Of a stretch of 64,000 nucleotides of DNA, positions 18,117 through 46,789 are shown piece by piece; positions within the stretch are counted from its first letter, which is position 1; each line of letters begins with the position of its first letter. The position numbers were made by a program, and so were the translations under genes. This DNA is from Agromyces soli. GTDB taxonomy: Bacteria > Actinomycetota > Actinomycetes > Actinomycetales > Microbacteriaceae. Below the pieces are notes generated by a model that was not told the DNA's origin, searched no databases, and was given only the letters and a program-made list of their open reading frames with translations. The stretch is taken from contig NZ_CP094533.1 in assembly GCF_022811605.1 (NCBI RefSeq), forward strand, positions 1,550,001 through 1,614,000. The letters are read 5' to 3'.

Positions 18117-18120
18117 TGCG

Positions 18121-18150
18121 CGGTTCGCTTCGACGGGCTCAGCGGGCCGG
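18121..18150. repeat. interspersed palindromic repeat half-copy, supplies the LacI stop codon
   Basis: The sequence from 18121 contains GGTTCGCTTCGACGGGCTCA then GCGGGCCGG, a variant of the repeat GGTTCGCTGAGCC-GTCGAAGCG that recurs at 32767 and 46790. Read on the minus strand it gives GCC CGC TGA, which is the last two codons and the stop of the LacI gene. It fills the space between two convergent genes. Confidence 0.6.
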
Positions 18151-19176
18151 GCGCGCCGTGCTGCCGCGCACCCGGAGCACCGCGTCGGAGAGCAGCGGGC
18201 CGTCGATCGGCTCTCCCTCGATGCGGCGCAGCAGCATGCCGACGGCGAGCTCCGCCTGCCGGTCCGGCTGCAGGTCGATTGCGGTGAGCGGCGGGTCGTG
18301 TCGTTCGGACCCCGGGCTGTCGATGCCGACGGCGACGAGCACGTCTTCGGGGATCCGCACCTCGGCGTCCCGGGCCGCCCGCAGCACGCCCTCGCGGTAC
18401 TGCTCCGCGGTCGCGATGACGGCGTCGGGGCGCTCGGTGCCGCGCAGCAGAGCGAGCGTCGACTCGTAGGGGTCGTTGTGGGCGTGGTCGAGGGGGATCA
18501 GCCGCACGACCTCCGGCATCCCGTGCTCGGCCGCCCAGTCGCGGTACGCCGCCGCGCTCTCCTCCGCCCACGACCAGCTCGCGTCGGCGCTGATCAGCGC
18601 GATCCGCCGGGCGCCTTGCTCGTGCAGGTGGTCGAGCAGCGTCCGCATGTTCTCGCCGTGATCGCTCGTGACGGCGTAGGGCCAGTCGGGGCGCGCGGCA
18701 TCCCGCTCCACCGTGACGACCGGCGTGCCGAGCCGCTCGAGCGCGGCGAGCCGTTCGTCGTTGCGCACGGGGTCGCAGAGCACGACCCCGTCGGCGCCGA
18801 TGAGCCGCCAGCCGTCCTCGCTCGTGACCGTCGGCGGCGTGAGCGTGAGCGCGTACCCGGCCTCGAAGGCCTTCGTCGCGGCCGCGCGCGCCGCGGTCAT
18901 GTAGAAGTCGAGGTCGAGCATCGGCACCGCGCCCTCGTCGACCGAGGGCAGGGCGAACGCGATCGTGCCGGTGCGGCCGAGGCGGAAGGCGAGCGCCGCG
19001 CGGCTCGGCCGGTAGCCGAGCTCGTCCGCGGTGCGCTGCACCCGGTCCCTGGTCGACTGGCGGAGCTTGCCGCTGCCGTTGAGCGCGGCCGAGACCGTGC
19101 TCGTGGACAGGCCGAGCTCGCGGGCGACGTCGTGGATGGTGACGCGTTTCGTCGCCGGCTGATCACGCTCCGTCAT
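18139..19176 (-). CDS. LacI-family transcriptional regulator
   Basis: 345 residues from ATG 19176 (GAGAGG upstream; a GTG at 19200 is the alternative). The N-terminal HTH reads VTIHDVARELGLSTSTVSAALNG with the hinge region GYRPSRAALAFRL, followed by a periplasmic-binding-protein-like sensor domain (GADGVVLCDPV, ARRIALISAD, AVIATAEQYREGVLRAARD). It lies 42 bases after the amidohydrolase at 19219 on the same strand and so appears to be the last gene of the hydrolase operon. LacI operators characteristically have a central CG, as in the GGAACGTTCC pair at 25804-25834, its probable targets. Confidence 0.92.
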   Translation of the reverse strand: MTERDQPATKRVTIHDVARELGLSTSTVSAALNGSGKLRQSTRDRVQRTADELGYRPSRAALAFRLGRTGTIAFALPSVDEGAVPMLDLDFYMTAARAAATKAFEAGYALTLTPPTVTSEDGWRLIGADGVVLCDPVRNDERLAALERLGTPVVTVERDAARPDWPYAVTSDHGENMRTLLDHLHEQGARRIALISADASWSWAEESAAAYRDWAAEHGMPEVVRLIPLDHAHNDPYESTLALLRGTERPDAVIATAEQYREGVLRAARDAEVRIPEDVLVAVGIDSPGSERHDPPLTAIDLQPDRQAELAVGMLLRRIEGEPIDGPLLSDAVLRVRGSTARPAR

Positions 19177-19218
19177 GGACCTCGACCTCTCCGTCGGCAC
19201 CAGGCGCGGGGAACGCCA

Positions 19219-20496
19219 TCAACTGTAGACGAGCTCGGTGCTGACGCGGCGCGACGCGACGAGCGCGCCGCGGCGCACCGTCCAGCGCGATCCCGCCTCA
19301 TTGCGCAGCGCGTGCAGGCGGTTGCCCGCGGCCAGCACGACGAAGGAGGCCTCCGCGCCCGCCTCGAGCCGCGGCGCCGGCCGGCCGACGGCGGCGCGGG
19401 CCGAGCTCGTCACCATCCGCCAGGCGTCGTCCACGCCCTCGCCCGCGCGGTCGGCGAGGGGCAGCGCGTGCCAGGCGAAGCGGGCCCGCTCGAGCGGGTC
19501 GAGGGTGCCGAGCGACTCCCAGTTGTCCTCGTGGTTGCCGGTGCCGATCGTCACGGTCACCCCGGCATCGAGCAGCTCGTTCGGCCGCGAGACGCCGCGG
19601 TACGGGTACGAGCTCTGCAGGTTCGACGGGCAGACGGTGATCGCGATGCCCGCTTCGGCGACCTTCTCGATCACGCGGGCGGCGTCGGCGTCGGCGTAGG
19701 TCTCGAGGGCGCCGACGTGGTTCGCGTTGACGAGCCCCTGCATGCCGTACGCGACGGTGAGCTCGGCGAGCGGCTCCAGCAGGCGCTCGCTCGGGTCGGT
19801 GAAGTAGTCGACGTTGATGTCGATCGGCCGGCCGAACCGTTCGGCGAGCTCGAAGACGAGCCGCAGGTGCGTGAGCCGCGCCTCGTCGTCGGCCTCGTTG
19901 TTGGGCCAGCCGCCGACGCGGTCCGCACCCATCGCGAGAGCCTCGGCGACGAGCCCGTAGGCGCGCGCGTCGCCGACCATGCCCTCCTGCGGGAACGCGG
20001 TGACGACGGTCTCGATCACGCCGTCGCACTCGGCTCGCGCGCGCAGCACCCCCTCCACCGAGGCGAGCCCGGTCACCGAGTCGATGTCGGCCTGCCCGGC
20101 GAGGAGGCCGACGCCCTCGAGCGCCGAGGCGCGCAGGAAGCGGCCGGCGCGCTCGGCGACGTCGTCGACGGTGAACGCCGCCTTGAGGTCGCGCTGGCGC
20201 TGCATGAGCACGGGGCGGGGGCCGTGCGCGACGAGCCCGAGCTCGGCGATTCGCTGCCGGCTGTAGACCTTGTCGGGGTGGCTGTGCGGCTCGACGAACG
20301 GGGTGGTCACGAGGCCGCCATCGGCGTCGATGACCTCGTCGGCGGCCGTGCCGGCCGCGGCATCCGGTCCGATCGCGGCGATCGCGCCGTCGCGGACGAC
20401 GACGTCCACGAGCGCGCCGGCCGGCGCGCCGGTGCCCGCGGCGTCCCGGTCGAGCCGGGCGCCGCGCACGATGAGCTGGGCGGTCTCAGAAGCCAT
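19219..20496 (-). CDS. CodA-like amidohydrolase (cytosine-deaminase family), copy A
   Basis: 425 residues. Metal-dependent amidohydrolase fold with the CodA-type motif FVEPHSHPDK (His71, His73), an interior NANHVGA His, and the GTGNHEDNW segment where cytosine deaminase has its catalytic Asp. QADIDSVTGLASVEGVLRAR and AFPQEG are shared nearly word for word with copy B at 23702, so the two are paralogues. Related enzymes deaminate or open cyclic amidines and amides. It overlaps the bicupin gene by 11 bases. The exact substrate cannot be read from sequence. Confidence 0.82.
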   Translation of the reverse strand: MASETAQLIVRGARLDRDAAGTGAPAGALVDVVVRDGAIAAIGPDAAAGTAADEVIDADGGLVTTPFVEPHSHPDKVYSRQRIAELGLVAHGPRPVLMQRQRDLKAAFTVDDVAERAGRFLRASALEGVGLLAGQADIDSVTGLASVEGVLRARAECDGVIETVVTAFPQEGMVGDARAYGLVAEALAMGADRVGGWPNNEADDEARLTHLRLVFELAERFGRPIDINVDYFTDPSERLLEPLAELTVAYGMQGLVNANHVGALETYADADAARVIEKVAEAGIAITVCPSNLQSSYPYRGVSRPNELLDAGVTVTIGTGNHEDNWESLGTLDPLERARFAWHALPLADRAGEGVDDAWRMVTSSARAAVGRPAPRLEAGAEASFVVLAAGNRLHALRNEAGSRWTVRRGALVASRRVSTELVYS

Positions 20497-21241
20497 CGCG
20501 GTTCACGTCCTTGTAGAGCAGGTAGGCGGATGCCTCGGGGCCGGTCGCGGTGAAGGCCTGCGTGCAGTACGGCGCCATGTAGATGAAGTCGCCCTGCTGC
20601 ACGTCGACGTGCTCGCCGTCGAGGTGGTACACGCCGCCGCCCTCGAGGAGGTAGAGGCCGTGCTCCTGGTGGTGGATCTCGACCATGCGGAACCGGGCGC
20701 CGCCCTGGAACCGCATCACGTTCATCGCGAGGTCGAAGCGCTCGTCGTCGGGCAGCAGCTGTCCGTAGCTGCCGTCGATGCCGTCGTCGTCGATGCCGAT
20801 GATGTCGCCGAGCCGGCCGGCCACGACGGGCGGCGCCTCGACGCCCTCGACGGCGAGGTACCGCTTCTTCACCCACAGGGCGCGGGAGGCCGCGACGGCC
20901 TCGAGCTCGAAGGTGCGGCCCTCGGGGAGGAAGAGGTAGCCCCCGTCCTCGAGCAGCCACTCCTCGCCGGCGGAGCGCACGCGGAGCCCGCCGTCGAGCG
21001 CGATGAGGAAGTTCTCGAAGCCCGAGCCCTGCGGGAGCGTGCTCGCGGCGCCGGCCTCGAGCTGCAGCAGGTACTGCCCGAAGCGGGCGGGGCTGCCCTG
21101 CGGTGCGGCGAGCACGGTCGCGGCGTACGGCGGCAGGCCGGGCAGCGTGTTCTCGACCATCGTGTCGGGCGTCATCAGGTAGTAGCGGTCGCCGACGCGG
21201 CCGCGGCTCGCGCTCAGGTAGTCGTTGCGGTAGCTCGTCAC
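20486..21241 (-). CDS. AllE-like bicupin ((S)-ureidoglycine aminohydrolase family)
   Basis: 251 residues from GTG 21241, whose bases overlap the upstream stop as GTGA. Two cupin barrels: the first around FENFLIALDGGLRVR and EDGGYLFLPEG, the second with the metal-binding set FRMVEIHHQEHGLYLLEGGGVYHL and VQQGDFIYMAPYCTQAF. The opening RNDYLSASRGRVGDRYYLMTPDTMVENTLPG region is typical of the AllE/YlbA group, which releases ammonia from (S)-ureidoglycine during allantoin breakdown. No allantoate amidohydrolase was found beside it, so a related but different substrate is possible. Confidence 0.82.
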   Translation of the reverse strand: MTSYRNDYLSASRGRVGDRYYLMTPDTMVENTLPGLPPYAATVLAAPQGSPARFGQYLLQLEAGAASTLPQGSGFENFLIALDGGLRVRSAGEEWLLEDGGYLFLPEGRTFELEAVAASRALWVKKRYLAVEGVEAPPVVAGRLGDIIGIDDDGIDGSYGQLLPDDERFDLAMNVMRFQGGARFRMVEIHHQEHGLYLLEGGGVYHLDGEHVDVQQGDFIYMAPYCTQAFTATGPEASAYLLYKDVNRDGF

Positions 21242-22323
21242 TCGGGGCTCCAATCGGCCGGAAGGGGGTCGGGGTAGCGGCCGTCGACGAGGAGCGGTGC
21301 GCCGTCGACGGTGATGGTGGGGCGTTCGACGACGAGGTCGACGTGCACCTCGGAGTGCCAGTGCGCGCCGGTGTAGTCGCCGAAGGGATGGCCGAGGGCG
21401 ATGTGGCAGCCGGGCACGTTCTCGTCGAAGAGGAGGTTCCCGCTGAGCGCCGTGCAGGCGCGATTGGTGCCGACGGCGAACTCGCCGATGCGGCCGGCGT
21501 GCTCGTCGCGGTCGAACCAGGCGCGCAGCCGCGCGGCGAGTTCCGCGTCGGGGTGGTCGAGCGCGACGAGCCGCCCGCCGCGCACCTCGAAGCGCGCGGG
21601 CTCGGCGAGCAGGCCGGTCGAGGCGTTGAAGGGGTAGCCGAGCACGCTCGCCGCGATGACGCCGTCGGCGCCGATCGGCGAGCAGAACACCTCGCCCTGC
21701 GGCAGTCGGCCGCCCTCGCCCGGCGCGTGGTAGAGCCCGGTGAACGCGGTCCAGGGTCGGTCAGGGTCGAGGGTGAAGCGGATGTCCGTGCCGAGGGCGT
21801 TCCGCACCTCGGCGGTCGTCGCGTCGGTGAGCCGCGTGCGGACGAGCTCGCTGAAGCGGGCCACTTCGCGGTAGTCGGCGGCGAGGCCGATGCCGAGGCT
21901 CGGCCGGTCGAGCGCCGTGAGCTGGGCGTGCCTGGCGCCCACGGCATCGAGCCGGGCCCAGAAGCGCTCGTCCCAGGCGAGGCGGTCGTCGCCGTCGCGC
22001 GCGGCGAACGCCGTCACGGTGGGCCGGTGCGCGGCGATCGCCCGCTCGATCTCGGCGAAGGCGGCCGGGTAGTCGTCGTCGAGCCCGGGCACGAGGTGCA
22101 GCCGGGCCTCGTCGGCGACGCGGGCCGCGGCAGTGACGATGCGCTCGGCGAGCTCCCGCGTCGCCTCGTCGGTGAGGACGAGCACCCGGTCGCTCGCGCT
22201 CACGGCGAGGCAGATGTCGATGAGCTCGCGCGCCCCGCGGTCGAGGTCGGCGTCGCTGACGGGCGGCAGCGTGCTCGGGCGCCGGAGCCCGGACGCGGCG
22301 CTGCTCGCGCCCGGCCCGCTCAC
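21238..22323 (-). CDS. M29 aminopeptidase-like / NicX-like metalloenzyme
   Basis: 361 residues from GTG 22323, again a GTGA overlap with the gene before it. The N-terminal half (DRVLVLTDEATRELAERIV) and the C-terminal half with GEVFCSPIGADGVIAASV, TALSGNLLFDENVPGCHIALG, and HWHSEVHVDLV match the COG2309 family, which includes M29 aminopeptidases and the Fe-dependent 2,5-dihydroxypyridine dioxygenase NicX. The HxD pair in VHVDLV is a metal ligand in both. Peptidase or ring-cleaving oxygenase activity cannot be decided; the operon of ring-opening hydrolases makes the second worth testing. Confidence 0.72.
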   Translation of the reverse strand: MSGPGASSAASGLRRPSTLPPVSDADLDRGARELIDICLAVSASDRVLVLTDEATRELAERIVTAAARVADEARLHLVPGLDDDYPAAFAEIERAIAAHRPTVTAFAARDGDDRLAWDERFWARLDAVGARHAQLTALDRPSLGIGLAADYREVARFSELVRTRLTDATTAEVRNALGTDIRFTLDPDRPWTAFTGLYHAPGEGGRLPQGEVFCSPIGADGVIAASVLGYPFNASTGLLAEPARFEVRGGRLVALDHPDAELAARLRAWFDRDEHAGRIGEFAVGTNRACTALSGNLLFDENVPGCHIALGHPFGDYTGAHWHSEVHVDLVVERPTITVDGAPLLVDGRYPDPLPADWSPE

Positions 22324-23705
22324 GCGGAGCTCCTCGCTGGCGCGGGGACCGCGAGCGGCACGAAGGCGCCGGGCCCCCGGTCGGTCACGAGTCCGCCGTC
22401 GAGCACGACGAACTCGCCGCGGGCGACCGTCGCGCGCACCCGGACGGTGCTCGGCCGGCCCTCGTAGGGCGACCAGCGGTCGGGTCCGAACTGGCCGGAC
22501 GCCTGCACCGGCCGGGCCTCGCCGAGCTGCAGCACCGTGAGGTCGGCGTCCGCGCCGGGCGCGATGCGCCCCTTCGCGGGCGCCGCGCCGCAGCGCTCGG
22601 CCGGGCGGCTCGTGACGAGGGCGAGCGCCTCGGACAGCGTCCAGCCGCGCCGCAGCGCCTCGTCCAGGAAGAGGGGCGCGAACTCGCGGGCGCTCTGGAT
22701 GCCGAACGGGCCGCCGAGCGCGTCGTGCTCGGCCACGGCCTTGTCGGCGACGGAGTAGACGCAGTGGTCCGACACGACGGCATCGATCGCCCCGTCGCGG
22801 AGCCGCCGCCACATCCCCTCGACCTCGGGCCGAGCGCGCAGCGGCGGTGCGCAGAGCGCGGTCCAGCCGAGCCGCAGGAAGTCCTCGGCGTCGAGCAACA
22901 GGTGGTGGGCGGTGACCTCGCAGCTCGCGGGGACGCCGCGCTCCCGTGCCGCGGTGACGAGGTCGACCGCCTCCGGCAGCGAGAGGTGCACGAAGTGCAC
23001 GGCCCCGCCGGTCTCTTCGGCGATCGCGAGAACGCGGCGCACCGCCTCGAGTTCGAGCTCGGGGCTGCGTGCGTCGAGCACGGCCGCGTAGTCGGTGCGG
23101 CCGGCGGCGCGCTCGGCGGCGATCCGGGCGCTCAGCCCCTCGCGGTCCTCGGCGTGCACGAGCACGAGCCCGCCGTGCCGCGCGGTCTCGGCGAGCCCCT
23201 GGCGGAGGTCGTCGTCGCTCGCCGAGGGGTAGTCCATGTCGTTCTCGGGCAGGAACGCCTTGAACCCGGGGGCGCCGAGCTCGCGCTGCCCGCCGAGCTC
23301 GCCGAGCCCCGGCCCGGTGAGCGCGCCCCACAGGCCGAAGTCGACGATCGCGCCGTGCGCGCCGAGCTCGGACTTCGCCGCATAGCGCGCGGCGGTGGTC
23401 GTCGGCGGGGTCGTGAAGGGGTGCTCGATGACGAAGGTGCAGCCGCCGAGCGCGGCGTTCGCCGTGCCGATGCGGTAGTCGGCGGCGAGGTCGTCGCCGG
23501 GGTTGTCGAAGTGCACGTGCAGGTCGACGAAGCCGGGGGAGACGACGTCGTCGCCGGCGTCGAAGACGCGCTCGGCGTCGACCTCGCGGTCGGCCCCTCG
23601 GCGCACGGCCGTGATCCGGCCGCCCTCGACGAGCACCGTGGCGGGCACGAGCTCGTCGCCGAGGAGCACCCGCTCGCCGACGACCGCGAGCTCGGCGCGG
23701 CTCAT
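22320..23705 (-). CDS. allantoinase/dihydroorotase-like cyclic amidohydrolase
   Basis: 461 residues. Binuclear amidohydrolase motifs in order: DLHVHFDNPG (His63, His65), the carbamylated Lys149 in GFKAFLP, His184 in LVHAED, a later VHFVHLS His, and Asp in VVSDHC. The spacing and C-terminal GRIAPGADADLTVL and PYEGR segments are those of allantoinases and hydantoinases, which open five- or six-membered cyclic ureides or imides. Its ATG overlaps the stop of the amidohydrolase B gene as ATGA, and its own stop overlaps the M29-like gene as GTGA. Confidence 0.87.
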   Translation of the reverse strand: MSRAELAVVGERVLLGDELVPATVLVEGGRITAVRRGADREVDAERVFDAGDDVVSPGFVDLHVHFDNPGDDLAADYRIGTANAALGGCTFVIEHPFTTPPTTTAARYAAKSELGAHGAIVDFGLWGALTGPGLGELGGQRELGAPGFKAFLPENDMDYPSASDDDLRQGLAETARHGGLVLVHAEDREGLSARIAAERAAGRTDYAAVLDARSPELELEAVRRVLAIAEETGGAVHFVHLSLPEAVDLVTAARERGVPASCEVTAHHLLLDAEDFLRLGWTALCAPPLRARPEVEGMWRRLRDGAIDAVVSDHCVYSVADKAVAEHDALGGPFGIQSAREFAPLFLDEALRRGWTLSEALALVTSRPAERCGAAPAKGRIAPGADADLTVLQLGEARPVQASGQFGPDRWSPYEGRPSTVRVRATVARGEFVVLDGGLVTDRGPGAFVPLAVPAPARSSA

Positions 23706-25024
23706 GCGCCGGCCCCCGCCGCGAGCCGGGCGTCGGCTCCGGCGATCGCCTCGTCGACGCTCCGCCGGGCGACGATGCGCCCGGCCTTGATCGTGGTGAG
23801 CGGGCCGCCCGGGCGGCGGAGCGCCTCGAGCCGGTCGCGGGCGCCGAGCAGCACGAGGTCGGCGGGCATGCCCGCCGTCACGTCCGGGGCGCGCCAGGCC
23901 TCGGCATCCGCCCGGCCGCGATCGTCGAGCGCGTGCGCCGCGCCCGAGGTGACCATGTGCCAGACGAGGTCGACGTCGTCGTCGCCGTAGCCGCCGCCGA
24001 CGAGGGTCATGTAGGCGCGGTCGAGCGGGCTCAGCGTGCCGAGCGGGTACCAGCCGTCGTTCAGGTTGTCGCTGCCGACGACGAGCTCGGCGCCGGCCCG
24101 GCGCAGCTCGTGCGGGCGGGAGAGCCCGCGCGGGCCGCCGTCGACGAGGTTCAGCGGGATGATCGCGACGCGCACGTCGGCCTCGGCGACCCGGGCGGCG
24201 ACGCGGAGGGCGTCCTCCTCGGAGTAGCGCTCGATGCCGCAGCAGTGGCTCGCGAGCACGCGGCCCTGGTAGCCGCGGGCGATGGTCTCCTCGGCGACGA
24301 CCTCGAGCATCCGCTCGCGCTCGTCGAGCCAGCAGTCGGCGTGGATGTCGACGTCGACGTCGAACTCCTCGGCGAGTTCGAACACCGTGCGCACGTGGGC
24401 GCGCTGCTCGGCGTCCCCCTCCTCGACATTGGGCCAGCCGCCGATGAGGTCCGCGCCCGAGCGCAGCGCCTCGCGGAGCAGCGGGAGCGCGCCGGGATCG
24501 CGGCCGAGGCCCTCCTGCGGGAAGGCGACGAGGTCGACGTCGAGGATGCCGCGCACCTCCTCGCGCGCCTGCAGCACGCCCTCGAATCCGCGGAGGCCGG
24601 CGATGGAGTCGATGTCGATGTTCGCGCGCAGCCGGGTGACGCCGTTCGCGACGGCGAGCTCGAACGCCCGGCGGGCGCGGCGGGCGACCCGCTCCGGCGT
24701 GAAGCCGGCCTTGATGCGGCTGGAGCGGGCGAAGTGGTCGAGTCCGGATGCCTCGGCGGGGTCGAGCTCGGAGAGGCTGAACGACTTGTCGGGGTGCAGG
24801 TGCGGTTCGACGAAGGCGCGGGCGAGGAGGCCGCCGCGCGCGTCGAGGCGTTCGGCCCCGGCGCGTTCGGCCCACTCGGCGAGGGCGGCCGCGCCGATGG
24901 AGCCGCTCGGCTCGATCGCGGCGACGGCGCCGTCGCGGAGCAGTGCATCGTGCTCGCCGGGGCGGCCGTGCAGCGCGGCGCCGGTGACGAGGAGGGCGGG
25001 GGCGTCCGTCGGCATGCCGGTCAC
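23702..25024 (-). CDS. CodA-like amidohydrolase (cytosine-deaminase family), copy B
   Basis: 440 residues if started at GTG 25024, which overlaps the upstream stop as GTGA; ATG 25015 is the alternative. It carries FVEPHLHPDK (His75, His77), ANIDIDSIAGLRGFEGVLQAR in sequence, the VDIHADCW strand and the LASHCCGIERYS His, followed by GSDNLNDGW near the metal-binding Asp. It is clearly homologous to copy A at 19219 yet differs enough to act on another intermediate or isomer. Two such paralogues in one operon suggest consecutive deaminations or ring openings. Confidence 0.82.
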   Translation of the reverse strand: MTGMPTDAPALLVTGAALHGRPGEHDALLRDGAVAAIEPSGSIGAAALAEWAERAGAERLDARGGLLARAFVEPHLHPDKSFSLSELDPAEASGLDHFARSSRIKAGFTPERVARRARRAFELAVANGVTRLRANIDIDSIAGLRGFEGVLQAREEVRGILDVDLVAFPQEGLGRDPGALPLLREALRSGADLIGGWPNVEEGDAEQRAHVRTVFELAEEFDVDVDIHADCWLDERERMLEVVAEETIARGYQGRVLASHCCGIERYSEEDALRVAARVAEADVRVAIIPLNLVDGGPRGLSRPHELRRAGAELVVGSDNLNDGWYPLGTLSPLDRAYMTLVGGGYGDDDVDLVWHMVTSGAAHALDDRGRADAEAWRAPDVTAGMPADLVLLGARDRLEALRRPGGPLTTIKAGRIVARRSVDEAIAGADARLAAGAGA

Positions 25025-25710
25025 CACTCCCACTCGTTCGCGGGCGCGTCGAGGTCGCCGTCGGGGTTCGCGATCGCGGCGGCGGCGGCGATGCGCACGG
25101 CCTCGGCCTGGAGCCGGAGGTCCATGCTCGGGCCGTTGCTGCCGAGGCTCGCGACGTGACCGGGGGTGTCGGGCAGGTGGATGAACCCGGCGCGGCTGCC
25201 GAGGCCGCGCTCGGCCACGAGGTGCAGCGCGGTGTACATCACGGCGTTGCAGCCGTGGGTCGACGCGGAGTTCGAGAGGAGGGCGGGGATGCCGCGCTCG
25301 CGGATCGCGTGCGTGATGGCCTTGATCGGCACCGTCGCGAGGTAGGCCGTGGGGCCGTCGGTGTAGACGGGGTCGCCGGCGGGGCGGTAGCCGTCGTCGT
25401 CGGCGAACTGGAAGTCCTGCACGTTCGCGGCGATGCGCTCGATCGAAACGGTGCTGCGACCGGAGAACACCCCGGTGGAGAGGATGACGGCGGGGGGCGT
25501 GCCGGCCTCGTCGAGGATCGGGGCGAGCGCCTCGGCGGGGTGGCGGTGCCAGGCGAGGCTCCGGCCGACCAGCAGGTGCCCCGCCACGGTCTCGCCGTCG
25601 AGCTCGGCGGCGAGCTCGGAACTCGGGTTGACCGGGTAGCGCAGATCGGCTCGTTCGGCGGTGTCGCCGAACCCGCCGTTGCCGGTGATCAGGATCCACG
25701 GTTGGCTCAC
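25021..25710 (-). CDS. pyroglutamyl-peptidase I-like (C15) hydrolase
   Basis: 229 residues, first gene of the leftward operon. The cysteine-peptidase triad aligns well: Glu91 in SIERIAANV, Cys154 in THGCNAVMYT and His178 in GFIHLPDTP. These are each exactly ten positions later than Glu81, Cys144 and His168 of classical pyroglutamyl peptidase I. The segment before Cys (PALLSNSAS) matches the usual SNTAG loop, but the N-terminal GFxPFGG signature is altered to TGNGGFGD, so the pyroglutamyl-binding pocket may have changed. In this context it may open or release a cyclic amide. Confidence 0.8.
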   Translation of the reverse strand: MSQPWILITGNGGFGDTAERADLRYPVNPSSELAAELDGETVAGHLLVGRSLAWHRHPAEALAPILDEAGTPPAVILSTGVFSGRSTVSIERIAANVQDFQFADDDGYRPAGDPVYTDGPTAYLATVPIKAITHAIRERGIPALLSNSASTHGCNAVMYTALHLVAERGLGSRAGFIHLPDTPGHVASLGSNGPSMDLRLQAEAVRIAAAAAIANPDGDLDAPANEWEW

Positions 25711-25803
25711 GTCTCGCTCCTTCGCATCACGGATTCGACGTGCCGGGAAGCCACCGGACCACGTCGTCGCCGGACCTCACGGTAGCCCATGCCGAGACGA
25801 AAA

Positions 25804-25834
25804 GGAACGTTCCATTCGAAAAAAAGAACGTTCC
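25804..25834. promoter_or_regulatory. paired GGAACGTTCC operators, LacI type
   Basis: GGAACGTTCC (25804-25813) and AGAACGTTCC (25825-25834) are each followed by ATTC and have centres 21 bases apart, two helical turns. The perfect palindrome with a central CG is the form bound by LacI-family proteins. They lie between the leftward hydrolase operon and the rightward transporter operon, just upstream of the TTGACA at 25841, in an unusually AT-rich patch. The LacI regulator ending the hydrolase operon (18139) is the likely binder. Confidence 0.75.
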
Positions 25835-25840
25835 ATTCCC

Positions 25841-25870
25841 TTGACAGCGATCCAGGCCGCCGTGTTTACT
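25841..25870 (+). promoter_or_regulatory. predicted promoter of the peptide-type ABC transporter operon
   Basis: A perfect -35 TTGACA (25841-25846) is followed after 18 bases by TTTACT (25865-25870), a usable -10. The transporter ATG is about 100 bases downstream. The LacI-type operators end seven bases before the -35, where binding could hinder polymerase or loop the divergent region. Confidence 0.6.
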
Positions 25871-25970
25871 CATCGGCAGACGGCCCCCATCGGCCACCGC
25901 AGGCGGAATCCCCCGACCGCACCAGCTACGCCGTCGATCGCACGTACCCACGACGAGGTGAGGAGCAGTG

Positions 25971-27608
25971 ATGAGGCGCACAGCCAAGGCCGCCAGACGG
26001 GCCATGATCGCAGGAGGCGCGGCGGCCGTCGTCGTGCTCGCCGGATGCGCGTCGCCCGCGGCACCCGAACGGCGCGACGCGGCCGTCGAGGTCGTCGAGC
26101 TCACCCCGGCCCCCGCCGGCGAGCTCGACCGCATCACCTGGGCCGTCTCGAGCGAGCCGGCCTCGCTCGACTGGATCTACAACGCCGACAACACCACCGG
26201 CTCGATCCTCGCGAACGTCTGCGAGGGCCTGCTCCGGCTCGCCCCCGACCTCTCGCTCGAGCCCGCGCTCGCCGAGTCCTTCGACCACCCCGACGCGACC
26301 ACCTGGGTCTACACCCTGCGCGACGGGGCGAGGTTCCACGACGGCTCGCCGCTCACCGCCGACGACGTCGTGTTCAGCCTGCAGCGCCACCTCGACCCCG
26401 CCGCCGGCTCGTTCTGGTCCGGCGCGTTCGCGAACGTCGCCTCGATCGCCGCGACCGGGCCGCTCGAGGTCACCGTCACCCTGAGCGCCCCCGACGAGCT
26501 GTTCAACGCCTACATGTCGAGCCCCGCCGGCATCGTCGAGCGCGCCGCCACCGTGCAGGAGCTCGGCGAGCGCTACGGCACGCCGCAGGGCGGCGTGAAC
26601 TGCATCGGCCCGTACGCGTTCGACAGCTGGGACTCCGGCCAGACGATCACCCTCGTCCGCGACGACGACTACTTCGACCCCGAGCTGCGGGCGAAGACCG
26701 AGACCGTGGAGTTCGCGATCGTCCGCGACCCCGCCGCCGTCGTCAACGGCCTGCTCTCCGGCTCGCTCGACGGCACCTGGGAGGTCGCCCCCTCCGCGAT
26801 CACCCGGCTCTCGGGCAGCGGCGTCGGCACCGTCTCCTACGGGCCGAGCACGCAGGGCTACAACGCGATCGTGATGGATCCCACCGGCCCCCTCGCCGAC
26901 CCCGTCGTGCGCGAGGCCCTCTCCATGGTCATCGACCGGCAGGCCATCATCGACGTCGCCATCGCCGGCGCCGGCCAGGAACAGCGCGCCCCCGCGGTGC
27001 CCGGCACCTGGGGCTACGAGCGCGACGCGTTCCAGGCCGCCTGGGACGACATCGACTCGGCGACCCTCGACCTGGATGCCGCGAAGGAACTGCTCGCCAC
27101 CACCACGGCGCCCACCGAGCCCATCGTGCTCGCCACGACGAGCGCCGAGGCGCAGACGCCCGTGATCGGCGCCGAGATCCAATCGGCCGCCGCCAAGATC
27201 GGCCTCGACGTCGAGATCAGCTCGGTCCCCGTCGACCAGTACTACGCCGTCTACACCGACGCCGAGGCGCGGAAGGGCATCGACCTCTACCTCACCGCCT
27301 GGGGCACCGACTTCGCCGACCCGCTGCAGATGTACCGCTACTTCGAGACGGGCAACTTCTACAACTTCTTCGGCTTCTCGAACCCCGACTACGACGCCCT
27401 CATCGCGCAGGCGGGCACCCAGTCCGACCCCGCGGAGCGCGCGGCATCCATCGTCGAGGCGCAGCGGATCGTCGTCGACGAGTCGCTCTGGATCCCGCTC
27501 TACGCGCCCTACAACACGATGTTCCTGAACGCCCGCGCCACGGGGGCCCCGGCCTCCTACGTGCAGCTGCACTCGCCGTGGGCGGCGATGATCGGGGCCG
27601 CCGGATGA
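25971..27608 (+). CDS. ABC transporter substrate-binding lipoprotein, peptide type (SBP 1)
   Basis: 545 residues. ATG 25971 has AGGAG five bases upstream; a GTG three bases earlier is possible. Signal peptide with lipobox VLAGC near residue 23. The solute-binding family 5 pattern follows: ANVCEGLLRLAPDLSLEPALAES in parts, VYTLRDGARFHDGSPLTADDVVFSL and a C-terminal FSNPDYDALIAQA. Family 5 proteins bind di/oligopeptides, nickel, opines or glycosides. It is the first gene of a six-gene importer operon and is a paralogue of SBP 2 at 31129. Confidence 0.93.
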   Translation: MRRTAKAARRAMIAGGAAAVVVLAGCASPAAPERRDAAVEVVELTPAPAGELDRITWAVSSEPASLDWIYNADNTTGSILANVCEGLLRLAPDLSLEPALAESFDHPDATTWVYTLRDGARFHDGSPLTADDVVFSLQRHLDPAAGSFWSGAFANVASIAATGPLEVTVTLSAPDELFNAYMSSPAGIVERAATVQELGERYGTPQGGVNCIGPYAFDSWDSGQTITLVRDDDYFDPELRAKTETVEFAIVRDPAAVVNGLLSGSLDGTWEVAPSAITRLSGSGVGTVSYGPSTQGYNAIVMDPTGPLADPVVREALSMVIDRQAIIDVAIAGAGQEQRAPAVPGTWGYERDAFQAAWDDIDSATLDLDAAKELLATTTAPTEPIVLATTSAEAQTPVIGAEIQSAAAKIGLDVEISSVPVDQYYAVYTDAEARKGIDLYLTAWGTDFADPLQMYRYFETGNFYNFFGFSNPDYDALIAQAGTQSDPAERAASIVEAQRIVVDESLWIPLYAPYNTMFLNARATGAPASYVQLHSPWAAMIGAAG

Positions 27609-28561: not shown

Positions 28562-29436
28562 CGCTCCCCACCACCGAGACGCGCTCGACGCACCTGCTCA
28601 CGCGGCGCTCCTGGCTCGCCATCCGCCACCGCGGCAACGCGCTCACGCTCGCCGCCGTCATCGCGCTCGGCGTGCTCGTGCTCGTCGCGATCCTCGCCCC
28701 CGTCATCGCGCCCTACGACCCCAACCAGGTCTCCCTGATCGACGCGCTGCAGCCGCCCTCGGCGGCCCACCTGCTCGGCACCGACGAGGCCGGCCGCGAC
28801 GTGCTCTCCCGGGTCATCTGGGGCGCGCGGATCTCGCTCCTCGGCCCGCTCGGCGTCGTGCTCGGCTCGACCCTCATCGGCGTCACCGTCGGCGTGTTGT
28901 CGGCGTGGCGCGGCGGCTGGGTCGACGCGACGGCCTCGCGCTTCGTCGAGATCCTCTTCGCGTTCCCCGGCGTGCTGCTCGCCATCCTCATCGTCGCCGT
29001 CTTCGGCCCGGGCCTCGCCTCGACCGTCGTCGCCCTCGCCGTCGCGTACATCCCGTACATGGCGCGCACGACCCGCAGCGTCGCGCTCGCCGAGCGGCAG
29101 ACGCCCTACATCCGGGCGCTCGAACTGCAGGGCATGTCGGCCTGGCGGATCACCTCGCTGCACCTCGTGCCGAACATCGCCCCGTTCGTGCTCGCCCAGG
29201 CGACGCTGTGCTTCGGCTACGCCATGATCGACCTCGCCGGCCTCTCCTTCCTCGGCTTCGGCGTGCAGCCGCCCGAGGCGGACTGGGGCGCCATGGTCGC
29301 GGCCGGCCAGGCCGCCCTGATCCAGGGCTCGCCCGCCCCGGCGCTCGCGCCCGGCGCGGTCATCGTCATCGCCGTCGTCAGCTTCAGCCTGCTGGGCGAG
29401 GGCATCGCGGAGCGCGTGAGGAGGACGAGCGCATGA
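28558..29436 (+). CDS. ABC transporter permease, DppC type
   Basis: 292 residues, starting GTG inside the previous stop (GTGA). Helix 1 is followed by YDPNQVSLIDALQPPSAAHLLGTDEAGRDVLSRVIWGARISL in successive pieces, the unmistakable DppC/OppC signature, and an EAA loop PYIRALELQGMSAWRI. Six predicted helices. Partner of the DppB-type permease. Confidence 0.94.
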   Translation: MTLPTTETRSTHLLTRRSWLAIRHRGNALTLAAVIALGVLVLVAILAPVIAPYDPNQVSLIDALQPPSAAHLLGTDEAGRDVLSRVIWGARISLLGPLGVVLGSTLIGVTVGVLSAWRGGWVDATASRFVEILFAFPGVLLAILIVAVFGPGLASTVVALAVAYIPYMARTTRSVALAERQTPYIRALELQGMSAWRITSLHLVPNIAPFVLAQATLCFGYAMIDLAGLSFLGFGVQPPEADWGAMVAAGQAALIQGSPAPALAPGAVIVIAVVSFSLLGEGIAERVRRTSA

Positions 29437-30278
29437 GCGGCTCGAAGCAGATGGTGGATGGCCCGGTGCTCGCGACCGAGGAGCTGCGCCTCGACGTCGG
29501 CGCCGGCGAGACCGCCGTGCGCATCCTCGACGGCGTCGGCCTCAGCTGCGCCGCCGGCGAGATCGTCGGCCTCGTCGGCGAATCCGGCTCGGGCAAGTCG
29601 ATGACGCTTCGCACCGCGGTCGGCCTCGCGCCGAAGGGGGCCCGGCTCACCGGTTCGGTGCGGGTCGCCGGGCGGGAGCTCGTCGGGGCGGGCCGTCGCG
29701 AGGTGCTGCGCGTGCGCCGCGAGATCGCCGCGATGATCTTCCAGGACCCCCGCGCCCACGTGAACCCGTACCAGCGCATCGGCGCGTTCGTCGCCGACGG
29801 CCTGCGCCGCACCCGCGGCTGGAGCCGCGCCCGCGCCGCGCAGCAGGTCGTCTCGCTCCTCGACGAGGTCGGCCTGCCCGACCCGGAGACGCTCGCCGAT
29901 CGCTACCCGCACGAGCTCTCGGGCGGCATGCTGCAGCGCGTGATGATCGCCTCGGCGCTCTCCACCGAACCCCGGCTGCTGCTCGCCGACGAGGCCACCA
30001 CCGCACTCGACGTCACCACGCAGGCCGAGATCATGGGCCTGCTGCGCCGCCTCCGTGAGGAGCGCGGCCTCGCGATCGTCTTCGTCACCCACGACCTCGA
30101 CCTCGCCGCGGCGAGCTGCGACCGCATCCACGTGATGCAGTCCGGCGTCGTCGTCGAGGAGGGCCCCGCCCTCGAGGTCTTCGAGCGACCCGAGCACCCC
30201 TACACCCGCAAGCTCCTCGACGCGATGCCCTCCCGGCTCGACGCCGAGGCGCCGATGCCGATCGGAGGCGCCGCATGA
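29433..30278 (+). CDS. ABC transporter ATPase, DppD type
   Basis: 281 residues. Walker A GESGSGKS, Q loop in MIFQDPRAHVNPYQ, signature LSGGMLQR, Walker B LLLADEATTALD and the switch His in VTHDL. The C-terminal PEHPYTRKLLDAMPSRL extension is that of peptide-type ATPases. ATGA overlap with the permease gene. The protein is somewhat shorter than typical DppD and lacks the C-terminal Cys cluster that binds an iron-sulfur centre in E. coli DppD. Confidence 0.94.
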   Translation: MSGSKQMVDGPVLATEELRLDVGAGETAVRILDGVGLSCAAGEIVGLVGESGSGKSMTLRTAVGLAPKGARLTGSVRVAGRELVGAGRREVLRVRREIAAMIFQDPRAHVNPYQRIGAFVADGLRRTRGWSRARAAQQVVSLLDEVGLPDPETLADRYPHELSGGMLQRVMIASALSTEPRLLLADEATTALDVTTQAEIMGLLRRLREERGLAIVFVTHDLDLAAASCDRIHVMQSGVVVEEGPALEVFERPEHPYTRKLLDAMPSRLDAEAPMPIGGAA

Positions 30279-31090
30279 GCATCCTCACCGTCGACGGGCT
30301 GAGCAAGAGCTACGACCACGGCCGCGTGAAGGCCGTCACCGACGTCTCCTTCGAGCTCGCCCAGGGCGGCTCGCTCGGCGTCGTCGGCGAATCGGGCTCC
30401 GGCAAGACGACGCTCTCCCGGCTCATCACCGGCATCGAGCAGCCCGACGCCGGCCGCATCGTCGTCGCCGGCACCGAGCTCGAGGCCCGCACCACGCGGC
30501 GGGCCCGGCACGAGCGCGCCGGCATCATGCAGATGGTCTTCCAGGACCCGTACCAGAGCCTCGACCCGCGGCAGACCCCAGAGGAGGCGATCGACGAGAT
30601 CATCACGCTGCACGGCGGACTCCGCGGCGCCGCCCGCACCGCCCGCCGCCGCGAGGTGCTCGACCAGGTCGACCTGCCGGAGCGGGCCCGGCGCGCCCTG
30701 CCCCGCGAGCTCTCCGGCGGGCAGCGGCAGCGCGTCGCGATCGCCCGGGCGCTCGCGGCATCCCCGCGCCTCCTGCTCCTCGACGAGGCGACGAGCGCGC
30801 TCGACGTCTCAGTGCAGGCGCAGATCCTCCGGCTGCTCGCGCGCATCCGCGCCGACACCGGCGTCGCCATCGTCTTCGTCAGCCACGACCTCGAGGTCGT
30901 CCGCTCGATCACCGAGGAGCTCATCGTGATGTTCCGCGGCGAGGTGGTCGAATCGGGCGAGACGAGCCGGGTGCTGCGCGATCCGCAGCACCCGTACACA
31001 CGCCTGCTCCTCAGCAGCGTGCCCCGCCCCGGATGGGACCCCGATCAGGTCTCCCGGGATCGCCGCACCTTCCTCCGTCAGCTCGCGTGA
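30275..31090 (+). CDS. ABC transporter ATPase, DppF type
   Basis: 271 residues. Walker A GESGSGKT, Q loop MVFQDPYQSLDPR, signature LSGGQRQR, Walker B LLLLDEATSALD and VSHDL. The tail DPQHPYTRLLLSSVPRPGWDP is the oligopeptide-type C terminus. ATGA overlap with the DppD-type gene; together they drive the importer. Confidence 0.94.
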   Translation: MSILTVDGLSKSYDHGRVKAVTDVSFELAQGGSLGVVGESGSGKTTLSRLITGIEQPDAGRIVVAGTELEARTTRRARHERAGIMQMVFQDPYQSLDPRQTPEEAIDEIITLHGGLRGAARTARRREVLDQVDLPERARRALPRELSGGQRQRVAIARALAASPRLLLLDEATSALDVSVQAQILRLLARIRADTGVAIVFVSHDLEVVRSITEELIVMFRGEVVESGETSRVLRDPQHPYTRLLLSSVPRPGWDPDQVSRDRRTFLRQLA

Positions 31091-31128
31091 CGGCCCGTCC
31101 GTCCCGCATCCCCCGCAAGGAGAGATCA

Positions 31129-32763
31129 ATGTCGATGTCCCGCCGCACGCCGCGACTGGCCGGGGGCGCCGCCGCCCTCGCCGCCGCCGTGCTCCTCGCC
31201 GGCTGCACCGCCGCCGGCCCGTCCCCTTCCAAAGGCACCGCCCCCGAGCTCACCGAGTCGCTGCCCGCCCCGAGCACCCAGGTCGAGCGCCTCGACTGGG
31301 CGCTCTACGCCGAGCCGTCCTCGCTCGACCCCATCTACCCGAACGACTTCCCGCCGATGGAGGTGCTCTCGAACGTCTGCGAGAGCCTCATGCGCATCGC
31401 GCCGGACTTCACGATCGAGCCCGCGCTCGCCGAGTCGTTCGAGCAGCCCGACCCGCTGACCCTCGTCTACACGCTCCGCGACGGGGTGACCTTCCACAGC
31501 GGCGCACCGCTCACGGCGGACGACGTGGTCTACAGCCTGAACCGCTCGCGCAGCGACGAGCTCGGCTCGTTCCACACCGCCGTCTACGCGAACGTCGCCG
31601 ACATCGTCGCGACCGCGCCGAACGAGGTGACGATCACGCTCACAGCCCCCGACCAGACGCTCTCGCAGGCGCTCGCCACGGGCGCCGGCCGCATCGTGAA
31701 CCAGGCGTCGACCGAGGCGCAGGGCACCGACTTCGGCACCCCCGGCTCCGACATCGACTGCACCGGCCCGTACTCGCTCGCCTCCTGGCGCGCCGGCGAG
31801 GCGATCACCCTCGAGCGCTTCGACGACTACTGGGACGACTCGCTGCCCTCCCTCGTCGCCGAGGTCGACTTCTCCTTCGTGCGCGACCCCGCCGCGCGGG
31901 TGAACGCGCTGCTCTCCGGCGAGGTCGACGGCACCTGGGGCGTCCCCGCCTCCGGCTTCGCCCGACTGCAGGGCGGCGGGCAGGGCACGCTCGCCTTCGG
32001 TCGCACCTCCGGCAGCTACGTCGCGATGGTGACCTCCCTCGACGGCGCGCTCGCCGACCCGCGCATCCGGCAGGCGCTCGCGATGAGCATCGACCGGGAG
32101 GGCATCATCGCCGCCGCCGTCGCCGGCGCGGCCGACCCGCTCGCCGCACCCGCCTCGCCCGGCACCTGGGGCTTCGCCCGCGAGGACTTCGAGCAGGCGT
32201 ACCAGGAGATCGCGAACGCGAGCGGCGGCCTCGAGGAGGCGAAGGCGCTCGTCGCCGAGGCCGGCGTGCCGAGCGAGACCCTCACCATCGCGGTGACGAA
32301 CTCGCAGGCGGAGATGCCGATCATCGGCGCCGAGGTGCAGCGCGCCGCGAAAGCGATCGGACTCGAGGCGGAACTCACGTCGCTGCCCGCCGACGGCTAC
32401 AACGCGCTCTACAGCGACCCGGCCGCCCGCGACGGCATCGACCTGATCTTCTCGCTCTGGCAGACAGACTTCCCGGACCCGACGCAGATCTACCAGTACC
32501 TCGAGAGCGACAACTTCTTCAACCTCTCGGGATGGTCGAACGCGGAGTTCGACCAGGCGATCGACGCCTCGCGGGCGAGCTCGGACGACGCCGAGCGGGC
32601 CGCCTCGCTCATCGCGGCCCAGTCGATCGAGATCGCCGACCCGACCTGGCTGCCGATCTACACCCCGTACAACGCGGTGTTCCTCGGCAAGGGGCTGACC
32701 GGGGCGCCGACCGCCGCCGTGCAGCTCAACTACCCCTGGGCGGCCATGATCGGCGGCGAGTAG
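31129..32763 (+). CDS. ABC transporter substrate-binding lipoprotein, peptide type (SBP 2)
   Basis: 544 residues, with AAGGAG before the ATG. Lipobox VLLAGC near residue 26. Family 5 layout as in SBP 1 (SNVCESLMRIAPDFTIEPALAESF, TLRDGVTFHSGAPLTADDVVYSLNRS in parts; C-terminal WSNAEFDQAIDASRAS). It is clearly homologous to SBP 1 over its whole length, and ends the transporter operon. Two paralogous receptors for one channel imply two related ligands, for example isomers or a substrate and its metabolite. Confidence 0.93.
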   Translation: MSMSRRTPRLAGGAAALAAAVLLAGCTAAGPSPSKGTAPELTESLPAPSTQVERLDWALYAEPSSLDPIYPNDFPPMEVLSNVCESLMRIAPDFTIEPALAESFEQPDPLTLVYTLRDGVTFHSGAPLTADDVVYSLNRSRSDELGSFHTAVYANVADIVATAPNEVTITLTAPDQTLSQALATGAGRIVNQASTEAQGTDFGTPGSDIDCTGPYSLASWRAGEAITLERFDDYWDDSLPSLVAEVDFSFVRDPAARVNALLSGEVDGTWGVPASGFARLQGGGQGTLAFGRTSGSYVAMVTSLDGALADPRIRQALAMSIDREGIIAAAVAGAADPLAAPASPGTWGFAREDFEQAYQEIANASGGLEEAKALVAEAGVPSETLTIAVTNSQAEMPIIGAEVQRAAKAIGLEAELTSLPADGYNALYSDPAARDGIDLIFSLWQTDFPDPTQIYQYLESDNFFNLSGWSNAEFDQAIDASRASSDDAERAASLIAAQSIEIADPTWLPIYTPYNAVFLGKGLTGAPTAAVQLNYPWAAMIGGE

Positions 32764-32766
32764 CAA

Positions 32767-32861: not shown

Positions 32862-32865
32862 GGGC

Positions 32866-41044: not shown

Positions 41045-42237
<1,193 letters not shown>

Positions 42238-42241
<4 letters not shown>

Positions 42242-43892: not shown

Positions 43893-43918
43893 GCGCGCAG
43901 ACGAGCGAGAGGAACACG

Positions 43919-46015: not shown

Positions 46016-46037
46016 ACGCGCAGGGCCGCGGGCGCCG

Positions 46038-46785: not shown

Positions 46786-46789
46786 CGGG

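What the first reader, a model, noticed from the sequence alone, without database searches (positions are those of the whole stretch)
18139..32763. Undescribed-looking catabolic system: six ring-opening hydrolase/cupin genes with a dual-receptor peptide-type importer
Seen: a leftward operon with 4-11 base overlaps encodes a pyroglutamyl-peptidase-like protein, CodA-like amidohydrolase B, an allantoinase/dihydroorotase-like enzyme, an M29/NicX-like metalloenzyme, an AllE-like bicupin and CodA-like amidohydrolase A, then a LacI regulator; divergently a six-gene Dpp-type importer. Known: these families act on cyclic amides, ureides, pyrimidines, lactams and peptides. Inference: together they import a cyclic amide, pyrimidine- or lactam-containing compound and degrade it stepwise with ammonia release. 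I know of no described pathway with this gene set; allantoin degradation is incomplete (no allantoate amidohydrolase) and pyrimidine pathways use other enzymes.
Basis: partly seen in the sequence, partly recalled or inferred. Interest (0 to 1): 0.8.

Follow-up and report, generated by a model that had tools for sequence, protein, structure and literature searches.

The report
Mobile 13-gene ring-opening catabolic cassette
A block of thirteen genes that appears to import and dismantle an unidentified nitrogen-rich small molecule is found intact in several unrelated soil bacteria, and our searches found no described degradation pathway that matches it.

Summary
Window 18139-32763 holds a leftward operon (Pcp-like, AmhB, allantoinase-like, M29, UGHY-like cupin, AmhA, LacI) and a divergent six-gene Opp/Dpp-type importer with two receptors. 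All 13 genes recur in the same order in 7 further genomes (2 Agromyces, 2 Leucobacter, 2 Streptomyces, one Mesorhizobium MAG). They are rare in each genus searched (3/60, 3/54, 2/343), and flanks are not shared between genera. A twin AACGTT site lies between pcp and sbp1 in all eight. The 21-bp-spaced pair occurs once, only there, in 5 of 6 host genomes searched; the sixth has 20-bp spacing. This is one dedicated, horizontally moving unit. It is not the ordinary allantoin pathway, which this host carries elsewhere. Several labels change: M29 has peptidase-type, not NicX-type, ligands; neither CodA-like protein keeps the deaminase Glu; AmhA also lacks two of four CodA metal ligands, invariantly, yet is among the best-conserved enzymes; the Pcp-like pocket is remodelled. 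Best guess: import and stepwise hydrolysis of a peptide-like compound bearing a cyclic ureide or imide, with ammonia release. Substrate and order of steps are inference.

The parts
18139..19176 (-). lacI: LacI-family regulator, last gene of the leftward operon
   Evidence: PF00356 48.2 bits, Peripla_BP_3 99.1 bits; ortholog directly after amhA in all 7 other complete cassettes and the cut one
19219..20496 (-). amhA: CodA-like amidohydrolase lacking two CodA metal-ligand positions (Asn228, Gly320) and the deaminase Glu (Tyr231)
   Evidence: Amidohydro_3 67.7 bits; residues invariant in 7 orthologs; aligned to CodA structures
20486..21241 (-). cup: bicupin, (S)-ureidoglycine aminohydrolase-like
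   Evidence: TIGR03214 234.3 vs cut-off 200; stricter models not met; metal and substrate residue positions kept
21238..22323 (-). m29: M29-type metallohydrolase
   Evidence: PF02073 62.9 bits vs cut-off 27; E211, E281, H307, H327, D329 invariant in 6 orthologs and aligned with aminopeptidase T
22320..23705 (-). alln: allantoinase/hydantoinase-like cyclic amidohydrolase
   Evidence: TIGR03178 317.6, below cut-off 357.85; nearest solved structures L-hydantoinase 1gkr (206.9) and allantoinase 3hm7 (200.2)
23702..25015 (-). amhB: CodA-like amidohydrolase, metal-ligand positions kept, deaminase Glu replaced by Cys228 (alternative start 25027)
   Evidence: Amidohydro_3 70.9 bits; H72, H74, H225, C228, H257, D316 invariant in 6 orthologs; 45% identical to AmhA
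25021..25710 (-). pcp: pyroglutamyl-peptidase-I-like cysteine amidase with altered pocket and invariant C-terminal PANEWEW
   Evidence: PF01470 159.8 bits; TIGR00504 167.9, below cut-off 201.75; E91, C154, H178, N11, H152, G153 invariant in 6 orthologs
25806..25832 (.). twin AACGTT half-palindromes 21 bp apart, presumed LacI operator pair between the divergent operons
   Evidence: present in all 8 complete cassettes; the 21-bp pair occurs once per genome, here, in 5 of 6 genomes searched
25968..27608 (+). sbp1: solute-binding lipoprotein 1 (SBP_bac_5)
   Evidence: PF00496 248.2 bits
27605..28561 (+). perm1: OppB/DppB-type permease
   Evidence: PF00528 111 bits, PF19300
28558..29436 (+). perm2: OppC/DppC-type permease
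   Evidence: PF00528 102.2 bits, PF12911
29433..30278 (+). atp1: Opp-type ATPase
   Evidence: PF00005 87.9 bits, PF08352 oligo_HPY
30275..31090 (+). atp2: Opp-type ATPase
   Evidence: PF00005 116.4 bits, PF08352 oligo_HPY
31129..32763 (+). sbp2: solute-binding lipoprotein 2 (SBP_bac_5), about 49% identical to SBP1 type
   Evidence: PF00496 248 bits; ortholog beyond atp2 in all 7 other complete cassettes

Best explanation
This is a self-contained catabolic cassette that moves between genomes as one piece. SHOWN by comparison: 13 genes kept together in fixed order in eight genomes, with a site pair private to the cassette between the two operons. INFERRED from families: the LacI protein binds that pair and is released by the substrate or an intermediate. 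The two-receptor Opp/Dpp-type importer brings in a small, peptide-like, nitrogen-rich compound. Inside the cell it is taken apart by hydrolysis only, since no oxidoreductase or ligase is in the cassette: the Pcp-like cysteine amidase splits an amide next to a small ring that is more polar than pyroglutamate, the allantoinase-like enzyme opens a cyclic ureide or imide (hydantoin or dihydroorotate type), AmhB and the M29 enzyme cleave the resulting amide or ureido groups, and the UGHY-like cupin hydrolyses an alpha-amino aminal to a glyoxylate-level product plus ammonia. AmhA is a non-canonical partner, either a metal-poor enzyme with changed chemistry or a conserved non-catalytic subunit acting with its sister AmhB. 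Which bond each enzyme cuts, and in what order, is a guess.
For: Unit: 13 collinear genes in the window and 7 other genomes; rare and scattered, 3 of 60 Agromyces, 3 of 54 Leucobacter (one on a contig that ends inside the cassette), 2 of 343 sampled Streptomyces; flanking genes not shared between genera beyond weak family-level matches. Horizontal movement: in the Mesorhizobium MAG, DNA about 82% identical to two Mesorhizobium plasmids begins about 50 bases after the lacI stop, while the cassette proteins are 69-90% identical to the Agromyces ones. Dedicated regulation: twin site. Importer type. Enzyme chemistry. Own versus L034: dN/dS 0.09-0.26 for the six enzymes, so they are under purifying selection. 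Not ordinary allantoin use here: canonical set elsewhere in this genome. A second cluster in the same genome and in Leucobacter zeae pairs a cupin 44% identical to this one with a dihydropyrimidinase, an M20 peptidase and an Asp/Glu/hydantoin racemase, a parallel use of such cupins beside cyclic amidohydrolases.
Against: No substrate, product or expression data. 7 of 8 hosts have no PF04115 ureidoglycolate lyase, so if the cupin really makes ureidoglycolate its next step is not accounted for. In 3 of 8 hosts (G1043, G1098, G1194) the cassette cupin is the only TIGR03214 protein over cut-off, so there a role in ordinary ureide breakdown is not excluded. No sigma-70-type promoter was found in the divergent region. 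The AlphaFold models of AmhA and M29 were too poor to use (mean pLDDT 64.6 and 57.6). The Mesorhizobium case rests on a MAG contig, and its other flank has only fragmentary plasmid matches.
Confidence: 0.45

Rival explanations
1. A variant ureide pathway: the substrate is allantoin or a derivative (for example N-methylated or imino-allantoin). Alln opens the ring, M29 or AmhB replaces allantoate amidohydrolase, and the cupin is a true ureidoglycine aminohydrolase.
For: Cupin over the TIGR03214 cut-off with metal and substrate positions kept; Alln best NCBIfam match is allantoinase; the three Agromyces genomes have no TIGR01879 protein over cut-off, so a replacement is possible; in 3 of 8 hosts the cassette cupin is the only one of its family over cut-off.
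Against: Alln misses the allantoinase cut-off, while the host has another allantoinase at 558 bits; the cassette cupin falls far short of NF008376, NF008373 and NF040771 (141.6/338, 139.5/445, 148.4/350), which the host's other cupin passes; it branches away from host canonical UGHYs (100/100); Pcp, two CodA-like proteins and a peptide-type importer with two receptors are not needed for allantoin; no ureidoglycolate lyase in 7 of 8 hosts.
Confidence: 0.15
2. Scavenging of pyroglutamyl peptides: Pcp releases pyroglutamate and the others finish off unusual residues.
For: Peptide-type importer; Peptidase_C15 with intact Glu/Cys/His positions.
Against: Below the pyroglutamyl-peptidase cut-offs (TIGR00504 167.9 vs 201.75); Phe to Asn11 and Phe/Tyr-Leu to His152-Gly153 in a conserved way; hydantoinase-type and CodA-like enzymes are unexplained. 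No search for 5-oxoprolinase in the host was made.
Confidence: 0.1
3. Detoxification rather than nutrition: uptake and destruction of a peptide-like antibiotic or other natural product made by neighbours (for example a ureido, hydantoin or imide compound).
For: Patchy horizontal distribution in soil actinomycetes; dedicated regulator and site.
Against: Importing a toxin before destroying it is an unusual strategy; six hydrolases exceed what inactivation needs; no efflux or target-protection gene in the cassette.
Confidence: 0.12
4. Several linked but functionally separate scavenging genes sharing a regulator, not one pathway.
For: The families act on different bonds; no enzyme's substrate is known.
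Against: Strict 13-gene collinearity in eight genomes of at least four genera, overlapping genes, and a single site pair.
Confidence: 0.08

Closest known systems
Allantoin (ureide) degradation AllB-AllC-UGHY
   Same: Has an allantoinase-like enzyme and a UGHY-like cupin over the TIGR03214 cut-off.
   Different: No allantoate amidohydrolase in the cassette; Alln under the allantoinase cut-off; extra Pcp, M29, two CodA-like proteins, peptide-type importer; this host has a separate canonical set.
Hydantoin utilisation (hyu) operons and ergothioneine ErtD
   Same: A hydantoinase-type ring-opening enzyme; nearest solved structure is Arthrobacter L-hydantoinase; ErtD is a sub-threshold match (224.8 vs 600).
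   Different: No M20-type carbamoylase (TIGR01879) in the cassette; cupin, Pcp and CodA-like enzymes are added (hyu gene content is recalled, not searched).
E. coli cytosine deaminase CodA / AtzC branch of amidohydrolases
   Same: Fold family and most active-site positions in AmhB.
   Different: Glu217 position is Cys in AmhB and Tyr in AmhA; AmhA also has Asn for His214 and Gly for Asp313 (CodA numbering recalled).
Pyroglutamyl peptidase I (C15)
   Same: Catalytic Glu/Cys/His positions and fold family.
   Different: N-terminal insertion of about 8 residues, altered pocket positions, invariant C-terminal PANEWEW.
Nicotinate degradation (nic cluster, NicX in the M29 fold)
   Same: M29-like fold family.
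   Different: Ligand positions of peptidases, not of the NicX-like protein; no monooxygenase or hydroxylase in the cassette.
Riboflavin/lumichrome degradation operon (PMC12746152, passages seen)
   Same: Has amidohydrolase and cupin steps, from an actinobacterium.
   Different: A 25-gene operon that needs a P450 and dioxygenase; the passages seen mention no transporter or peptidase.

Membership tests
Allantoinase (TIGR03178) | Score over the curated equivalog cut-off 357.85 | tested here: not met
   317.6 bits; another protein of the same genome scores 558
(S)-ureidoglycine aminohydrolase | Score over TIGR03214 cut-off 200 | tested here: met
   234.3 bits
(S)-ureidoglycine aminohydrolase | Score over stricter models NF008376, NF008373, NF040771 | tested here: not met
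   141.6/338, 139.5/445, 148.4/350
(S)-ureidoglycine aminohydrolase | Metal ligands (Glu, His, His, Gln) and Tyr/Tyr/Lys substrate positions (roles recalled) | tested here: met
   E188, H190, H194, Q228, Y205, Y240, K244 invariant in 7 rows and aligned to 4e2q
(S)-ureidoglycine aminohydrolase | Activity on ureidoglycine | not testable with these tools
   needs an enzyme assay
Allantoin pathway | Allantoate amidohydrolase (TIGR01879 family) in the cassette or host | tested here: not met
   None among the 13 genes; no match over cut-off in the three Agromyces genomes (best about 32 bits vs 204); over cut-off in the other 3 of 6 hosts, elsewhere in the genome
Pyroglutamyl peptidase I | Score over TIGR00504 cut-off 201.75 | tested here: not met
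   167.9 bits; Pfam Peptidase_C15 is met, 159.8 vs 22.7
Pyroglutamyl peptidase I | Catalytic Glu, Cys, His (roles recalled) | tested here: met
   E91, C154, H178 invariant in 6 rows and aligned with known enzymes
Pyroglutamyl peptidase I | Hydrophobic pGlu pocket (Phe in the TG-F loop, Phe/Tyr-Val/Leu before the Cys; roles recalled) | tested here: not met
   Asn11 and His152-Gly153, invariant in 6 rows; two ordinary Pcp, two sequences (Cys side only)
Cytosine deaminase (CodA) | Four metal ligands (His61, His63, His214, Asp313) and Glu217 (numbering recalled) | tested here: not met
   AmhA keeps HxH only (N228, G320, Y231); AmhB keeps the four ligands but has Cys at the Glu
M29 metallopeptidase | Pfam gathering score and five metal-ligand positions (roles recalled) | tested here: met
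   62.9 vs 27; E211, E281, H307, H327, D329 invariant and aligned to 2ayi
NicX (2,5-dihydroxypyridine dioxygenase) | NicX-type ligand set | tested here: not met
   A protein judged NicX-like from its neighbourhood (L094) has Phe, His, Met where this one has E211, E281, H307; one reference only
Opp/Dpp ABC importer | SBP_bac_5 receptor, two BPD_transp_1 permeases, two oligo_HPY ATPases | tested here: met
LacI-family regulation | LacI HTH plus a palindromic operator with central CG | tested here: inconclusive
   HTH and effector domains met; conserved AACGTT pair found, binding not tested

The most novel reading that the evidence does not exclude
The cassette encodes an undescribed catabolic route for a so far unrecognised class of natural compound (a peptide-like molecule with a cyclic ureide or imide). 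AmhA and AmhB form an obligate pair in which a CodA-type barrel that has lost half its metal ligands does new chemistry or governs its sister, and a C15 cysteine peptidase has been turned into a ring-ureide amidase.
Probability: 0.3. Interest if true: 0.75.

Novelty: new variant of a known kind. Interest (0 to 1): 0.55.

Why it matters
A catabolic unit kept intact with its own regulator in Agromyces, Leucobacter, Streptomyces and apparently Mesorhizobium implies a compound worth eating in soil that nobody has named. Finding the substrate would give a new nitrogen source or natural product, a reassigned pyroglutamyl-peptidase fold, and a test case for how an amidohydrolase works, or why it is kept, after losing canonical metal ligands. 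The private twin operator makes the inducer directly testable.

Tried and rejected
Rejected: (1) 'the set is just allantoin degradation': the host has that set elsewhere and Alln misses the cut-off; kept as a rival for hosts without a second UGHY-family cupin. (2) 'M29 is a NicX-like dioxygenase': ligand positions differ. (3) 'The CodA-like proteins are deaminases': Glu position lost in both. (4) 'Cassette is plasmid-borne as a rule': no plasmid record holds a close relative (AmhA best 35%, all 192 records under 60%; M29 8 records and Pcp 95 records, all under 60%). (5) 'It is the lumichrome operon': different content (passages only). (6) Creatinine use, suggested by a CodA-like gene and an FAD oxidoreductase beside lacI in Leucobacter zeae (L057): no related gene beside the other cassettes.

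Led nowhere: AlphaFold models of AmhA and M29 were poor for want of alignment depth, so no fold search was run; no sigma-70 promoter found; searching for the organism names gave no catabolic clue in the listings; M29-like genes in haloarchaeal plasmids and an actinobacterial genome, and Pcp genes in plasmids, lie in other contexts.

Dropped before counts: L039 (38% over 65 residues). The partial Leucobacter contig L036, the same DNA as L081, counts as a carrier in 3 of 54 but not as a complete cassette. Matches at 33-38% identity (1 and 12 genomes) were treated as ordinary CodA paralogs. Own-versus-distant dN/dS values are not used, since synonymous sites are saturated; atp2 and sbp2 were not in that computation.


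Full report
WHAT IS THERE. Window 18139-32763 lies in a 3.81 Mb single-contig genome whose nearest named carriers of this block are Agromyces mediolanus strains (96-98% identity of AmhA). Thirteen genes fill it: a leftward operon pcp-amhB-alln-m29-cup-amhA-lacI and a divergent sbp1-perm1-perm2-atp1-atp2-sbp2.

ONE UNIT. A scan of one genome per species (genome contigs) with the AmhA/AmhB alignment gave 101 pattern stretches, 9 encoding relatives, 7 loci, one of them spurious. Of the six real loci five hold the whole block and one is a 3.6 kb contig that ends inside it. Genus searches added one Leucobacter and one Streptomyces. In total eight complete cassettes: this genome, two A. mediolanus, Leucobacter zeae, another Leucobacter, Streptomyces albipurpureus, another Streptomyces, and a MAG named Mesorhizobium. 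Order and orientation of the 13 genes are the same in all eight. In one A. mediolanus genome (G1047) sbp2 reads a stop at codon 347.

RARE AND MOBILE. Carriers: 3 of 60 Agromyces, 3 of 54 Leucobacter, 2 of 343 sampled Streptomyces; only this genome among 249 sampled from the family, apart from one 34% paralog; only this genome among 396 sampled from the phylum, apart from 12 with matches at 33-38%. The M29 protein alone: this genome and one 35% relative in 394 of the class. Genes beside the cassette are not shared between genera beyond weak family-level matches; the two Streptomyces share theirs and Agromyces share the lacI side (94%). In the MAG the cassette has 67% G+C against 64% around it. 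DNA about 82% identical to Mesorhizobium plasmids pMESCI01 and pMspAR02b begins about 50 bases after the lacI stop. The other side has only fragmentary matches, mostly to Rhizobium. This points to transfer between phyla but rests on one MAG contig.

PRIVATE OPERATOR. Between pcp and sbp1 all eight complete cassettes carry two AACGTT-centred sites, 21 bp apart (20 in both Leucobacter); in Streptomyces albipurpureus both are perfect 16-base palindromes. The 21-bp pair was searched in six whole genomes: exactly one place in each of five, always this one, and none in L. zeae, whose spacing is 20; the reversed-pattern control gave none. That the LacI protein binds it is inference. No sigma-70-type promoter was found there.

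THE ENZYMES. Cup passes the TIGR03214 ureidoglycine aminohydrolase cut-off and keeps the metal and substrate positions of that enzyme (residue roles recalled), but falls far short of the stricter models and stands apart from the hosts' canonical enzymes in a tree (100/100; that the cassette cupins form a single clade is weakly supported, 51/22). Alln is closest to allantoinase and L-hydantoinase but below the allantoinase cut-off. M29 keeps all five M29-peptidase ligand positions; the NicX-like comparator does not. The Pcp-like protein keeps the Glu-Cys-His triad; it has Asn11 where two ordinary Pcp have Phe, and His152-Gly153 before the Cys where four ordinary sequences have Phe/Tyr-Leu; all six orthologs end in PANEWEW. 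AmhA and AmhB are 45% identical sisters. Both lack the CodA deaminase Glu. AmhB keeps the metal-ligand positions. AmhA has Asn and Gly at two of four, invariant in seven orthologs. AmhA is nonetheless the most conserved of the six enzymes against S. albipurpureus (65%) and second or third against the Mesorhizobium MAG and L. zeae (78%, 66%), where Cup leads; own versus L034 its dN/dS is 0.125. It is therefore not decaying.

HOST BACKGROUND. This genome separately encodes xanthine dehydrogenase subunits, uricase, hydroxyisourate hydrolase, OHCU decarboxylase, an allantoinase fused to glycerate kinase, glyoxylate carboligase, malate synthase and a canonical UGHY. So the cassette is an addition. 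In three hosts (G1043, G1098, G1194) the cassette cupin is the only family member over cut-off. The three Agromyces have no TIGR01879 amidohydrolase over cut-off, the other three hosts tested do. Seven of eight hosts have no ureidoglycolate lyase. A second cluster (G000:C1 about 17.7-30.6 kb) pairs a 44%-identical cupin with a dihydropyrimidinase (484 bits, cut-off 393), an M20 peptidase, an Amidohydro_2 protein, an aldehyde dehydrogenase and an Asp/Glu/hydantoin racemase, and recurs in L. zeae. It shows that this cupin branch works beside cyclic amidohydrolases more than once.

HOW IT MOST LIKELY WORKS. See Best explanation: import, exocyclic amide cleavage, ring opening, amide or ureido cleavage, aminal hydrolysis with ammonia release. 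Only the unit, its conservation, the site pair and the residue patterns are shown; the chemistry is inference from families.

LITERATURE. Nine searches of open PMC text listed no paper on such a cassette. I saw passages of two papers (PMC12746152; PMC4016543) and only listings of the rest. Subscription literature was not searched.

VERDICT. It is an undescribed arrangement of known enzyme families, hence a new variant of a known kind, with a real chance of an unknown compound behind it.

Noticed in passing
G000:C1 about 17733-30629 (L089:12733-20000, L090:153-5629); L. zeae L092:7038-19979: A second hydrolase cluster with a UGHY-like cupin, dihydropyrimidinase, M20 peptidase, Amidohydro_2, aldehyde dehydrogenase, Asp/Glu/hydantoin racemase and a sugar-type ABC importer, conserved in two genera.
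   Followed up: partly
L089:6476-9013 (G000:C1:11476-14013): One 845-residue reading frame matches glycerate kinase (TIGR00045) in its first half and allantoinase (TIGR03178, 558 bits) in its second; a similar frame is in L. zeae (L091:14166-16757).
   Followed up: partly
window 32762-32866; also 18126-18144 and 46790-46838; L033 and L034 after lacI: Dispersed REP-like palindromes (TGGTTCGCTGAGCTCGTCGAAGCG type) lie at both ends of the cassette in Agromyces; a 49-base near-perfect inverted repeat follows sbp2.
   Followed up: partly
L094:4121-15673 versus L035 and L093: The Mesorhizobium plasmid backbone next to the MAG cassette carries different cargo in each record (a nicotinate-type cluster with its own LacI regulator in pMspAR02b), which suggests an insertion hot spot.
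   Followed up: partly
L057:12714-15231 (Leucobacter zeae): A CodA-like gene that keeps the deaminase Glu and an FAD oxidoreductase lie next to lacI, convergent with it.
   Followed up: partly
L054:11960-16000 and L079:1-4163 (Streptomyces): Both Streptomyces carry a further peptide-type receptor gene and two more amidohydrolase genes about 8 kb beyond sbp2.
   Followed up: no
L028:6992-7642 (Prescottella equi plasmid p1-WH99): A gene annotated pyroglutamyl-peptidase I sits inside a cluster with an aromatic ring-hydroxylating dioxygenase, VOC proteins and alpha/beta hydrolases, so C15 proteins may serve in other catabolic routes too.
   Followed up: no
L096 / G1047:C4:42615-44246: sbp2 of this A. 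mediolanus genome reads an internal TGA at codon 347 (assembly error or natural loss not decided).
   Followed up: partly
window about 41045-56841: By eye from the translations, genes resembling a phenylacetate degradation (paa) set; not checked with a family search.
   Followed up: no
G000 whole genome: The genome is rich in Amidohydro_3 proteins: 46 match pieces, 17 of them above 150 bits.
   Followed up: no
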